Under the pieces are notes generated by a model, which was not told the DNA's origin, did not search any database, and worked only from the letters and a program-made list of their open reading frames with translations. This document shows, piece after piece, positions 2,580 through 8,392 of a DNA stretch of 64,000 nucleotides. Numbering within the stretch: position 1 is the first letter of the stretch; each line of letters opens with the position of its first letter. The stretch lies in assembly GCA_022843405.1 (NCBI GenBank), contig JALHNQ010000015.1, positions 1 to 64,000 of the forward strand, in the 5' to 3' direction. The stretch is from Methylocystis sp. (GTDB taxonomy: Bacteria > Pseudomonadota > Alphaproteobacteria > Rhizobiales > Beijerinckiaceae). Both the position numbers and the translations under genes were made by a program.

Positions 2580-2629
2580 TGGTGGAGCCAGACGGAATCG
2601 AACCGACGACCTCTTCAATGCCATTGAAG
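2580..2629 (-). repeat. left attachment site: 3' half of tRNA-Ala(GGC)
   Basis: Fifty bases identical to 8343-8392. On the minus strand it covers the anticodon stem-loop, T-arm and 3' acceptor strand with CCA, but the 5' half is replaced by unrelated sequence from 2630 on. It is therefore the attachment-site duplicate left by integration, not a functional tRNA. Confidence 0.92.
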
Positions 2630-2713
2630 TCAGCCGTTATCGATCAAGTCTCAAGTGCCTTAAAGAAAACAACAGTTTAGCTAGATAGCCGGTCCTTCAG
2701 AAGGTGCTCTTGG

Positions 2714-2728
2714 AGCAAATCTGGAGCA
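2714..2728 (+). repeat. 15-bp direct repeat, left copy (possible integrase arm site)
   Basis: AGCAAATCTGGAGCA occurs here and again at 8146-8160, near opposite ends of the element and in the same orientation. Tyrosine integrases bind short arm-type repeats near both ends of their element, so this is a candidate. This copy overlaps the GGAG that serves as ribosome-binding site of the integrase, which would allow autoregulation. Confidence 0.5.
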
Positions 2729-2735
2729 ATTGACC

Positions 2736-3755
2736 GTGGCGACCTTCCTCAAACGCAACAATCGCTGGCGTGTGCAAATCAGACGCACCGGCTACCCGTC
2801 AATCACCAAGACATTCGCAGCCAAAGCGGACGCCCAAGCATGGGCACGAGACAAAGAAAGACAAATCGACCGAGGCGAATTGCCAACCAATCACCACGAA
2901 CTGAAGGCAATCACTGTTGGCGATCTACTCCAGCGTTATCGGGACACCATCACGCCGAAGAAGCGAGGGCAACAATCTGAACGCTACATGCTCGGCACCA
3001 TTGCCAGTCACCCGCTATCGCAAGTGCATCTGTCTCGGTTGAAACCAGCGGACATCGCTCAATATCGAGACGAACGAGCACGGAGCGTAACGCCGTCGTC
3101 TGTGCTGCGTGAACTGGCGATCCTGTCGCATATGTTTACTCTGGCGATGAAAGATTGGGGCATACCCCTCGCTTCGAACCCCGTCACCTTGATTTCCAAA
3201 CCAGCTCCGAACAAGGCCCGAGATCGCAGGCTGGAGGAAGGTGAACTGGAGCGGCTGGAGGCCGCCTTAAGCAAGGTCAGGAACCCTTACATCAAACCGG
3301 CTTTCTTTTTCGCCATACACACAGGCATGAGACGCGGGGAGTTGCTCTCGTTAACATGGGCGAACGTAGACCTCACCAATCGAACCGCCTATCTCCCGTT
3401 GACCAAGAACGGTCACAGCCGCACAGTTCCGTTAAGCGGCAATGCTATCGACGTTCTGAAGGAATTATCCTCGCGCTCGGACACCAGAGTGTTTCCTATC
3501 ACTGCAAACGCTCTGAGACTGGCGTGGGAGCGAGTCAGGGAGAGAGCCGACATCGATGATTTACATTGGCACGATCTTCGACACGAGGCAGTCTCGCGTT
3601 TCTTTGAGCTTGGACTGTCCGTCCCTGAAGTCAGCCTGATTAGCGGTCACAAAGACGCCCGGATGCTAGCCCGTTACACTCACCTAAAGGCTGAGGACGT
3701 AGCCAAGAAATTAAACTTACAGCAATATAGCTTGTATAGCGACATTATTACTTGA
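2736..3755 (+). CDS. phage-type tyrosine recombinase (integrase)
   Basis: Site-specific recombinase that integrates and excises the element at the tRNA-Ala site. The N-terminal ~50 residues look like an AP2-like arm-binding domain (NNRWRVQIRR, then TFAAKADAQAWA). A SAM-like core-binding domain follows, then the catalytic domain. Catalytic residues visible are Arg in HTGMRRGELLSLTW, Lys in PLTKNGHSRTVPL, the HDLRH box, His in ISGHKDARML and the nucleophile Tyr in ARYTHL. GTG 2736 is preferred over TTG 2730 because GGAG at 2723-2726 is nine bases ahead of it. All catalytic positions are present, so the enzyme is probably active. It reads away from the left attachment site towards the cargo. Confidence 0.92.
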   Translation: MATFLKRNNRWRVQIRRTGYPSITKTFAAKADAQAWARDKERQIDRGELPTNHHELKAITVGDLLQRYRDTITPKKRGQQSERYMLGTIASHPLSQVHLSRLKPADIAQYRDERARSVTPSSVLRELAILSHMFTLAMKDWGIPLASNPVTLISKPAPNKARDRRLEEGELERLEAALSKVRNPYIKPAFFFAIHTGMRRGELLSLTWANVDLTNRTAYLPLTKNGHSRTVPLSGNAIDVLKELSSRSDTRVFPITANALRLAWERVRERADIDDLHWHDLRHEAVSRFFELGLSVPEVSLISGHKDARMLARYTHLKAEDVAKKLNLQQYSLYSDIIT

Positions 3756-3781
3756 CAGATAGCAATAAAAGAGCGTATACT
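3752..3781 (+). promoter_or_regulatory. strong sigma70-type promoter of the element's main operon
   Basis: TTGACA at 3752-3757 and TATACT at 3776-3781, separated by 18 bp. The -35 box overlaps the integrase stop codon. It is near-consensus, which is unusual for this GC-rich host, and points into the genes starting at 3965. Confidence 0.75.
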
Positions 3782-3828
3782 AGAGGTATAGGGTAGAGGA
3801 TATTTCAATTCTCTTCCCCTATATCCCT
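3782..3828. promoter_or_regulatory. imperfect inverted repeat at the operon start (possible operator)
   Basis: The left arm AGAGGTATAGGGTAGAG (3782-3798) faces a right arm at 3811-3828 whose reverse complement is AGGGATATAGGGGAAGAG. The pair begins right after the -10 box, where a repressor would block transcription or the leader RNA could fold. Both arms carry the TATAGG core that recurs six times at 6871-7096, suggesting one binding protein for both regions. Function is inferred. Confidence 0.4.
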
Positions 3829-6704: not shown

Positions 6705-7431
6705 ATAGAATGGAAAAATGATTAGTTTTTCCCAAGGGCTCCTATTGAGGTTCCCGTGAAAGGCCGTCTACCCCTAGAGTTCGGAATCTTTCGATAAGGC
6801 ATTCCAACTCACGGGGTTGGCCTATAGTTATGAGAAGAAAAAGAAAAAAATATAGTTATATTGGTATTACCTATAGGCGCTTAGCGCCTTAAGGGGTGCA
6901 CTCCAAGGGGATACCTACATTATCTTATAGTTCTCTTTTTCTATAGCGAGGCTCGATTAGCCGAGCCCTATAGGAGCAGCTATAGGCTCAACTACATGAG
7001 TAGACCCTTATCGCATGAGATTCTCATCTATAGGTATAGACGGAAGTGTAAACGATAGTCTTAAACATGTGGCTACTCCTATAGGTACTCTATAGGTCCT
7101 ATCTTTCTTCCTTTTTCTTTTGATAACAAAGGCTTCTGTCACACCAGCAGCACAATATGATACCATAATATACTGTTTTTATTTGTTTTTATTCTTTTCA
7201 TCTCCTTTTCAGCCAATAGCTGACCTATCCTCTGTTGCTATAAGTATCTGTAATTATTGTTAGATAAATCCGGGGTCTAGTTCACCATACATAGCTCACC
7301 CCTATCCCCCCGGTACCCCTTGCTACCCCAATACACCTTCTTTGACCCCCTCAGCCATTTCTTATTATTGACAGAATCTCGCAGCTTTTGCTACTGTATT
7401 AAAACAACCACCTATTTTGGGGGGCTTCTCA
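6705..7431. other. AT-rich non-coding block with repeats and hairpins
   Basis: About 730 bp with no convincing gene. It holds six exact CTATAGG motifs, two near copies, at least two perfect hairpins (6875-6889 with AGGCGC/GCGCCT arms; 6950-6967 with GGCTCG/CGAGCC arms) and long A/T runs around 6835-6860 and 7100-7240. Such a combination downstream of a helicase gene is what one expects of a replication origin or a control region. Short frames here have no ribosome-binding sites and were not called. Confidence 0.7.
6822..7096 (+). repeat. iterated CTATAGG motifs (iteron-like)
   Basis: Exact CTATAGG starts at 6871, 6968, 6980, 7028, 7079 and 7090; CTATAGT at 6822 and CTATAGC at 6941 are one base off. 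All are in the same orientation within 275 bp. Pairs 6968/6980 and 7079/7090 are spaced 12 and 11 bp, about one helical turn. The TATAGG core also occurs in the inverted repeat at 3782-3828. Confidence 0.7.
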
Positions 7432-7956
7432 ATGTTAAGAACATTAATCGAGAAGGCATTAGCTTTGGCTTTACTTACATTTACGGTATTAGCGTTGCCA
7501 CTCAGCGTTATCGCTCTAATGCATTGGTTTCAAATCCAGTGGTATATTGCTTTAATTGTTGCAATGTTCCTCGCACCCGGAATACCAGCATTCGCATTAG
7601 CTGGCCTTTTCTTCCTATATCAGGCGGACTTTAACATACAAGACGCCATACATCCAGACATTGAGCACCCAGCCGCACTATCGTCAGTACCTTCTTCAGA
7701 TGAGGATTTGGCGCTTATACGCGCCACTTGGTTCCCAAAGCTCAAAAAGAATTGTATTAACGAGCTTTCGAAGAAGGACTCCTCGACAACTTTTATAGTC
7801 GCATCGCCTGATACGTATTGTTCCTGTTATATCAATGAAGCGCTAAAATCCATTAGTAAAGATGAGCTTACATATGTAATTAAAAACAAAACAATGTCCC
7901 CATCTATGGTTCATTCTCTACGGAAAGCAACAATTGTATGCAATATAGAAGAATAA
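7432..7956 (+). CDS. two-TM membrane protein with four-cysteine C-terminal domain
   Basis: ATG 7432 is preceded by a run of six G at 7419-7424 as ribosome-binding site; 174 residues. Two hydrophobic segments lie at about residues 7-33 and 37-65 (ALALALLTFTVLALPLSVIA and WYIALIVAMFLAPGIPAFAL). The rest is a soluble domain with Cys in LKKNCINEL, then DTYCSCYINEAL, then a final VCNIEE. This C-x(~20)-YCxC-x(~30)-C layout is shared with small exported proteins, including the chromosomal one at 55620-55889. Two TM helices place both ends on the same side. It is the last cargo gene and monocistronic. Function unknown; an exclusion, immunity or envelope role is only a guess. Confidence 0.65.
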   Translation: MLRTLIEKALALALLTFTVLALPLSVIALMHWFQIQWYIALIVAMFLAPGIPAFALAGLFFLYQADFNIQDAIHPDIEHPAALSSVPSSDEDLALIRATWFPKLKKNCINELSKKDSSTTFIVASPDTYCSCYINEALKSISKDELTYVIKNKTMSPSMVHSLRKATIVCNIEE

Positions 7957-8276
7957 GTGAGGTGATTTATCAACAACGTCTGTCCATATAGAGCAGGCAT
8001 CATCCCGGATGAGTCTCAGTTTGGCCTCCGGCGCTTCGCGCCTACCGGGGGTTACCACCCCCACCCTCATCGCTGTTGCCTTTCTTTCAACGCCCGATAC
8101 GGTCTTTCGGGTAATGGAATCCGCAACTTACGGGCCAACCGATGTAGCAAATCTGGAGCACGACAGAGATAAATCCGTGGCCTTGAGACCAATTCCGTGG
8201 TAGCTTGAACGAGTGTCAAACCGACGCAGACGAGCATCCATCCGGGAGAGCCGGCTTCAGCTATCTGTTTGTTTTC
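7957..8276. other. non-coding right part of the element
   Basis: No gene with a ribosome-binding site is visible. It contains a GC hairpin around 8027-8068 (GGCGCTTCGCGCC and a CCGGGGG/CCCCC pair) and the right copy of the 15-bp repeat. Base composition returns towards that of the host here. Confidence 0.5.
8146..8160 (+). repeat. 15-bp direct repeat, right copy (possible integrase arm site)
   Basis: AGCAAATCTGGAGCA, identical to 2714-2728. It lies about 185 bp inside the right attachment site; the left copy is about 85 bp inside the left one. Candidate arm-type binding site of the integrase. Confidence 0.5.
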
Positions 8277-8297
8277 GGGGCCATAGCTCAGTTGGGA
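8277..8297 (+). repeat. inverted copy of the first 21 bases of tRNA-Ala(GGC)
   Basis: The bases from GGGGCC to TTGGGA equal the 5' end of the adjacent tRNA, but on the opposite strand. The reverse complement is at 8398-8418, so the two form an inverted pair separated by 100 bp. Downstream of it is a perfect GCAAGC-GAA-GCTTGC hairpin. It cannot be a complete tRNA as it stands. Confidence 0.85.
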
Positions 8298-8342
8298 TTA
8301 GCAAGCGAAGCTTGCGCCTGCCCGCAGGGCTGAGTGCTGAAA

Positions 8343-8392
8343 TGGTGGAGCCAGACGGAATCGAACCGACGACCTCTTCAATGCCATTGAAG
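8343..8392 (-). repeat. right attachment site within tRNA-Ala
   Basis: Exact 50-bp match to 2580-2629. The crossover must lie somewhere in this identity block; integration rebuilt the tRNA 3' half, so the gene stays functional. Confidence 0.9.

What the first reader, a model, noticed from the sequence alone, without database searches (positions are those of the whole stretch)
2580..8392. Compact tRNA-Ala integrative element without known cargo type
A perfect 50-bp direct repeat, an intact tRNA at one end and a catalytic-looking integrase define a 5.8-kb element. Apart from the integrase it has one packed operon of four unfamiliar genes ending in a helicase-like ATPase, a repeat-rich non-coding block and a membrane protein. 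The absence of capsid, relaxase or partition genes suggests a minimal replicating or satellite-like element, or an undescribed defence island.
Basis: partly seen in the sequence, partly recalled or inferred. Interest (0 to 1): 0.8.

Follow-up and report, generated by a model that had tools for sequence, protein, structure and literature searches.

The report
Compact mobile island in tRNA gene
A 5.8-kb piece of mobile DNA has inserted itself into an alanine tRNA gene of a bacterium; it belongs to a little-known group of compact islands that share an integrase and an unusual helicase-like enzyme, several of which carry anti-virus defence genes.

Summary
A perfect 50-bp repeat (2580-2629, 8343-8392) frames an element ending at an intact tRNA-Ala, and a close relative, G032, has the same site uninterrupted. 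The integrase keeps its motifs. The 620-aa protein (HEL) is a P-loop NTPase with helicase-like motifs that matches no curated family above its cut-off. HEL marks a sparse family: 27 distinct loci, window included. An integrase ORF lies nearby in 20 of 27, and 12 of 27 are closed by direct repeats, 11 of them at tRNA genes. All four operon genes recur in one same-genus genome, there interrupted by an IS and a primase-like gene; three of the four recur in two Mesorhizobium elements. In one relative HEL is fused to a RepB-type primase, so I read HEL as a replication protein. In 7 of the 12 closed elements the variable genes match defence-type families. The window's own variable gene, a membrane-type protein, has no recognised function. 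Best reading: a compact excising and replicating element that needs a helper to move between cells, designed like a P4 or PICMI satellite. Excision, replication and transfer are inferred. The structure prediction of HEL never finished.

The parts
2580..2629 (.). att core copy, end without the tRNA 5' half
   Evidence: exact 50-bp repeat; single copy in the empty site of G032
2711..2728 (+). candidate integrase arm-type site (two TGGAGCA units); 94% copy at 8143-8160
   Evidence: the same paired motif lies near both ends of the G021 element (L006 2669 and 12256); role inferred
2730..3755 (+). tyrosine integrase, 341 aa
   Evidence: PF00589 E 9e-29, phrog_1 9.1e-67
3965..4237 (+). ORF1, 90 aa, TTG start; found in 4 of 27 loci, window included
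4237..4473 (+). ORF2, 78 aa; relative only in G021 (L006) among the 26 loci; weak phrog_9082 match (6.1e-5)
4466..4849 (+). ORF3, 127 aa, weak partial HNH_3 similarity; found in 4 of 27 loci, window included
   Evidence: (E 0.0024, below cut-off)
4842..6704 (+). HEL, 620 aa, P-loop NTPase with helicase-like motifs (PGIGKTS, WDEA, QAACRGAVRK)
   Evidence: (ResIII E 3.7e-4, below cut-off)
6821..7096 (.). cluster of 10 CTATAGG sites (several as CCTATAGG palindromes) in an A+T-richer block, candidate replication origin
   Evidence: function inferred
7432..7956 (+). membrane-type protein, 174 aa, between HEL and the att site, the slot that holds the cargo in L006
8277..8297 (+). inverted copy of the first 21 nt of the tRNA-Ala gene
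   Evidence: I1; a direct 17-nt copy at the integrase-far end of the G021 element; meaning unknown
8343..8392 (.). att core copy inside the tRNA
8343..8418 (-). tRNA-Ala (GGC), intact, target gene

Best explanation
A compact integrative element of 5.76 kb per unit (5.81 kb counting both repeat copies). Shown: it inserted at a 50-bp tRNA-Ala core, leaving the tRNA intact, and the same core proteins recur in other such islands. Inferred: the integrase cuts the element out as a circle; the operon ORF1-ORF2-ORF3-HEL then copies the circle from the repeat-rich block, HEL acting as the replicative or origin-opening motor; the gene between HEL and the att site is interchangeable cargo, a defence-type system in several relatives and a membrane-type protein here. 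Having no recognised transfer genes, it would depend on a helper for cell-to-cell movement, more likely a phage than a conjugative element in this host.
For: Exact 50-bp repeat, intact tRNA and empty site. Integrase family and motifs. HEL in 27 distinct loci with an integrase ORF in 20 of 27; 12 of 27 closed by direct repeats, 11 at tRNA genes; in 12 of those 12 an integrase lies 10-153 bp from one repeat. Rough background: 8 loci of 12-13 kb fetched for another protein had an integrase ORF in 1 of 8. In L009 HEL is fused to RepB_primase (E 2.5e-11) and PriCT_2 (E 4.8e-6); L006 has a related separate primase gene. Repeats follow HEL: CTATAGG in the window and four copies of a 12-mer spaced 14 bp in L007. 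pN/pS 0.34 for HEL, 0.40 integrase, 0.39 ORF3 between window and G021 (pS saturated). Defence-type matches in 7 of 12 closed elements: L004, L005, L006, L017, L019, L080, L082. The host has a TerL hit with head-like gene neighbours on contig C25 (head genes by eye) and no VirB4 hit.
Against: Primase was found in only 2 of 27 loci, and not in the window. HEL's helicase nature rests on motifs and weak hits: ResIII is below its cut-off, comparison with five SF2-type proteins gives 34% over the Walker A region only, and the PDB profile search gave no usable hit. No clear repeat cluster shows after HEL in L006 or L009. HEL has no match in 50,697 phage records and one locus in IMG/VR, so packaging has no positive support. 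The element and the C25 phage stretch share only one 14-mer. Seven of 27 loci show no integrase (L010, L018, L020, L023, L026, L079, L083); L026 and L079 are not near a contig end. Fifteen of 27 loci could not be closed.
Confidence: 0.6

Rival explanations
1. HEL and its small operon are themselves a defence system, and the element is a tRNA-borne defence island without its own replication.
For: HEL sits among restriction, STAND, TIR and AAA-type genes in relatives, and helicases are common in defence systems (recalled).
Against: HEL stays while the neighbouring defence-type genes differ from element to element, which fits a core gene; in L009 it is fused to a primase; no PADLOC model matched it up to E 1.
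Confidence: 0.2
2. An integrative mobilizable element lacking a relaxase (oriT-only), moved by a conjugative element.
For: No relaxase family among the hits of the six window proteins; such elements are described in PMC11389934 (passages).
Against: No VirB4-type gene (PF03135) in the host assembly, which is in 98 contigs and may miss a plasmid; no oriT was looked for.
Confidence: 0.15
3. A decayed prophage or satellite remnant that can no longer move.
For: The window lacks the primase-like gene that its sister element in G021 has.
Against: Exact repeats, open genes, integrase motifs intact, pN/pS 0.34-0.53 across the five compared genes; the primase is also absent from L007, sister of the primase-bearing L009, so its absence is not clearly decay.
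Confidence: 0.15

Closest known systems
PICMI (phage-inducible chromosomal minimalist islands, Vibrionaceae)
   Same: Small chromosomal element with integrase, few unknown genes, a replication gene and a slot for defence systems (PMC10803314, passages).
   Different: The PICMI search model asks for AlpA, Fis and a DUF3987/DUF5906 primase; none was matched in the six window proteins. No packaging evidence here.
P4-like satellites
   Same: A variable anti-phage locus next to the integrase in a compact satellite (PMC9122126, passages).
   Different: No psu-type match in the window proteins; no cos site was looked for; that P4 has its own primase-helicase is recalled, and HEL is a different protein.
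RepB-type primase-helicase replication proteins of plasmids and phages (recalled as a class)
   Same: RepB_primase and PriCT_2 fused to the HEL-type protein in L009.
   Different: The window's HEL has no primase part, and matches no curated helicase family above cut-off.
tRNA-integrated defence islands
   Same: Defence-type genes beside a tyrosine integrase at a tRNA gene in relatives.
   Different: HEL accompanies the integrase whatever the cargo; the window copy carries no recognised defence gene.

Membership tests
Tyrosine-recombinase integrative element at a tRNA gene | Integrase, direct repeats equal to the tRNA end, intact tRNA, empty site in a relative | tested here: met
PICMI | AlpA, Fis and DUF3987/DUF5906 primase with the integrase (search model in PMC10803314, passages) | tested here: not met
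   six window proteins scanned with Pfam, PHROGs and NCBIfam: no such hits
P4-like satellite | psu marker gene (used as marker in PMC9122126, passages) | tested here: not met
   no psu-type family among the hits of the six window proteins
Phage satellite in general | Induction and packaging by a helper phage | not testable with these tools
   only indirect: TerL in the host genome; no phage-record match of HEL
Integrative mobilizable or conjugative element | Relaxase or VirB4-type conjugation gene | tested here: not met
   none among the hits of the six window proteins; PF03135 not found in the genome assembly. oriT-only elements not excluded
Autonomously replicating integrative element | Replication initiator or primase-helicase with an origin | tested here: inconclusive
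   primase fusion in L009; none in the window; candidate origin by repeats only
SF2 helicase | SF2 core fold with its motifs | tested here: inconclusive
   motif-like strings present; ResIII below cut-off; hhalign 34%; structure job unfinished
Known anti-phage defence system | Match to a defence model | tested here: not met
   PADLOC best E 0.031 for the six window proteins
Tycheposon / VEIME | Marker genes of those families | not tested
   seen here only in a search listing and a review passage

The most novel reading that the evidence does not exclude
A separate, undescribed lineage of compact helper-dependent elements (satellite-like), mostly in Alphaproteobacteria, defined by a tyrosine integrase plus a new P-loop helicase-type replication protein covered by no family library searched here, with exchangeable anti-phage cargo. 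The window copy would be one of its smallest intact forms, and its membrane-type protein a candidate new defence or superinfection-exclusion gene.
Probability: 0.35. Interest if true: 0.7.

Novelty: new variant of a known kind. Interest (0 to 1): 0.5.

Why it matters
If right, HEL gives a single-gene handle for finding a family of compact mobile elements that the phage, plasmid and defence collections searched here barely show. The genes beside HEL are then a place to look for new anti-phage genes, as the psu-int slot is in P4-like satellites (PMC9122126, passages). It would also make testable how islands with no visible transfer genes spread between species.

Tried and rejected
Rejected: scattered core genes (they are absent from the empty site of G032; among the same-genus genomes only G021 matched HEL). 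Not supported enough to claim: HEL as a known type III restriction subunit (below cut-off); ORF3 as an active HNH nuclease (partial, E 0.0024; the four-row alignment shows no conserved histidine before the DG box; that one is needed is recalled). ORF1 as a clamp-binding protein was an idea from its C-terminal residues; not tested and not claimed.

Led nowhere: single-sequence scan of IMG/VR, phage records for HEL and the membrane protein, plasmid records for the membrane protein, PDB profile searches for HEL and ORF3, shared words between element and the C25 phage stretch (one 14-mer, inside the integrase gene), the structure prediction of HEL (submitted, polled, never finished). In six paper searches I saw no paper on this family among the rows listed; two searches listed 15 of 1,064 and 15 of 24 papers. 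Of three papers I saw passages, of the rest only listings. Most subscription papers are not held, so this is weak evidence of novelty.

Rows set aside: L011 and L014 duplicate L009 and L007 and were dropped. L020 was missed in the first tallies because its HEL runs off the contig end; it was added (no integrase, no tRNA), so 27 loci are counted. ORF2 and the membrane protein were sought in 26 of the 27. L001-L003, L008 and L064-L077 are short copies or weak matches. Weak profile matches G186, G125, G778, G594 and G1018 were not followed. Only selected cargo proteins were scanned one by one. A3 holds 79 of the 107 ORFs picked in the 12 closed elements (28 dropped: 6 window ORFs, 11 integrases, 11 HELs), and its scans show only 25 of 86 and 25 of 48 families, so absence of structural or transfer genes in relatives is not fully tested. 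A2 and the tree left out short HELs (L020, L024, L025, L081); A2 also left out L004, L005 and L078-L083. The greedy ORF picker replaced ORF2 of the window by an opposite-strand ORF. No matched background of tRNA islands without HEL was counted, so the defence cargo is an association only.
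Full report
Check of the observation. The 50-bp direct repeat at 2580-2629 and 8343-8392 is perfect, and the right copy lies in the only tRNA gene ARAGORN finds in the window, tRNA-Ala(GGC) 8343-8418 minus. In G032, a same-genus genome whose right flank is 97% identical, window 118-2629 and 8343-9320 align to adjacent stretches that overlap by exactly 50 bp, and the printed junction reads straight through from the left flank into the tRNA. That is the empty site. In G018 the same spot holds 3.1 kb of other DNA, and in G021 the matching tRNA-Ala carries a different island with a related integrase, so the site is used repeatedly.

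Genes. The integrase (341 aa) matches PF00589 at 9e-29 and phrog_1 at 9e-67 and keeps its motifs. Three small genes and a 620-aa gene follow, overlapping by 1, 8 and 8 nt (coordinates). The 620-aa protein, called HEL here, matches ResIII below the curated cut-off and nothing better than E 0.02 in PHROGs, NCBIfam or PADLOC. An alignment of 16 relatives keeps a Walker A box, a WDE box and Q489/R493/R497 (spelled out). I call it a P-loop NTPase with helicase-like motifs; the helicase assignment is not proven. Profile comparison with five SF2-type proteins from the same islands aligned only the Walker A region, at 34% probability.

Relatives of HEL. Single-protein search hit 2 of 199 other relatives and 2 of 397 other genomes drawn from the phylum (G187 is in both). 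With the A2 profile, 10 of 396 other genomes of the order matched at E up to 1e-10, six of them below 1e-100 (two of the six already known), and 3 of 384 other genomes of the class, two of them strongly. Sixteen loci came from the GTDB collection, two of them duplicates of ones in hand; one from IMG/VR; two from large plasmids; none from 50,697 phage records. Titles name Mesorhizobium, Phyllobacterium, Azospirillum, Ruegeria, Leisingera, Rhodovulum, Novosphingobium, and outside the class Geomonas and a gammaproteobacterial MAG. L014 and L007 are the same contig stretch, and so are L011 and L009, which puts the window in the order of Mesorhizobium.

The islands. Of 27 distinct loci (window included), 20 hold an integrase ORF. 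Twelve of 27 can be closed by direct repeats: window, L004, L005, L006, L009, L013, L015, L017, L019, L024, L080 and L082. Eleven of the twelve involve a tRNA gene (Ala twice, Val twice, Phe twice, Gln, Thr, Pro, Leu, Ser); L015 has a 47-bp repeat elsewhere. Repeats are 17 bp in L004, L005 and L080 and 39-120 bp in the rest. Interiors are 5.5 to 16.5 kb, and in 12 of the 12 an integrase lies 10-153 bp from one repeat. The other 15 loci were not closed; several stop at contig ends, but L026 and L079 do not. In 8 loci of 12-13 kb fetched for the membrane protein an integrase ORF occurred in 1 of 8, a rough background only.

The operon. ORF1, ORF2, ORF3 and HEL recur in that order in G021 (L006) at a tRNA-Ala(CGC), with an IS and a primase-like gene between ORF3 and HEL. 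ORF1, ORF3 and HEL recur in two Mesorhizobium elements, L007 and L009. In L009 HEL is fused to RepB_primase and PriCT_2 domains. The tree joins window with G021 and L009 with L007, each at 100/100, so in both pairs one partner has a primase and the other not. Seven other inner branches pass the support mark and eight of 20 are open, and the two longest branches (L019, L021) meet, so deeper order is unsure.

Cargo. In 7 of the 12 closed elements selected proteins match defence-type families: L006 TIR-like effector plus an AAA_21 ATPase; L017 AAA_15 and SNF2 proteins; L019 methylase plus ResIII protein, type III-like; L004 AAA-TIR protein; L005 type I system (record annotation); L082 type I system; L080 AAA_21/AAA_15 ATPase, DUF3226 and a HATPase protein with a REase_II match of 8.7e-8. 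In the other five (window, L009, L013, L015, L024) I recognised none, though not each of their proteins was scanned singly. Among loci not closed, L007 has a RelA_SpoT protein matching PADLOC candidate PDC-S33 at 1.8e-95, L012 an ApeA-type HEPN protein and L026 a NACHT protein. Defence genes are common in tRNA islands generally (recalled), and I made no matched background count, so this is an association, not an enrichment.

The window's own variable gene. It encodes 174 aa with two hydrophobic stretches (by eye). Relatives were found in 7 of 149 other genomes, as proteins of 92 to 202 aa; the three longest share a C-terminal CxC segment with it. None in phage or plasmid records, and none in the other 25 HEL loci. 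It looks like a captured relative of genes of the same bacterial family (inference). Its function is open.

Non-coding parts. CTATAGG is strongly clustered after HEL. L007 has four copies of a 12-mer spaced 14 bp in the same place, while L006 and L009 show no clear cluster. A paired TGGAGCA motif stands next to the integrase in the window, with a 94% copy near the other end, and near both ends of the G021 element; it was not found in the other 14 loci examined. I read it as an integrase arm site. A 14-nt word, GGCTCGATTAGCCG, is shared by the blocks after HEL in window and G021.

Mechanism. Shown: integration at tRNA-Ala with a 50-bp core. Inferred: excision by the integrase; replication of the circle driven by HEL; helper-dependent transfer. 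The host assembly has one TerL hit on contig C25 near ORFs that look like head genes and no VirB4 hit, which leans towards a phage helper, weakly. The element is designed like a P4 or PICMI satellite, but it fails the marker-gene tests of both, and no packaging was tested.

Verdict. The new point is that HEL marks a wider, sparse family of compact islands with exchangeable cargo that the family libraries searched do not cover. I rate it a new variant of a known kind, of moderate interest.

Noticed in passing
window 8277-8297: A 21-nt copy of the 5' end of the tRNA-Ala gene lies inside the element, inverted relative to the tRNA; the G021 element has a direct 17-nt copy at its integrase-far end (L006 12368-12384), 39 bp before the repeat.
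   Followed up: partly
L005 3806-4381 and 14150-14725; L080 4589-5149 and 11710-12183: Pairs of BRO/anti-repressor genes in opposite orientation bracket the cargo and HEL (same protein accession in L005), perhaps a route for swapping or inverting cargo; single ones in L018, L020 and L078.
   Followed up: partly
L058 8065-11194 (G018) and L063 (G021): The same tRNA-Ala(GGC) site holds different insertions in relatives, the G021 one with a related integrase and an ATPase-like protein (by eye).
   Followed up: partly
L100 (G000 contig C25), 12500-17226: A terminase hit with capsid-like and connector-like ORFs (by eye) near a contig end of the host genome: a possible prophage and candidate helper.
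   Followed up: partly
L009 12405-13292: A 295-aa gene in the Mesorhizobium element has no Pfam, PHROG or PADLOC match at the limits used and could be an unknown cargo gene.
   Followed up: no
L079 (G768): HEL homologue in a 3.65-Mb contig with no integrase ORF found within about 8-9 kb on either side and two upstream genes (374 and 639 aa) without Pfam match.
   Followed up: no
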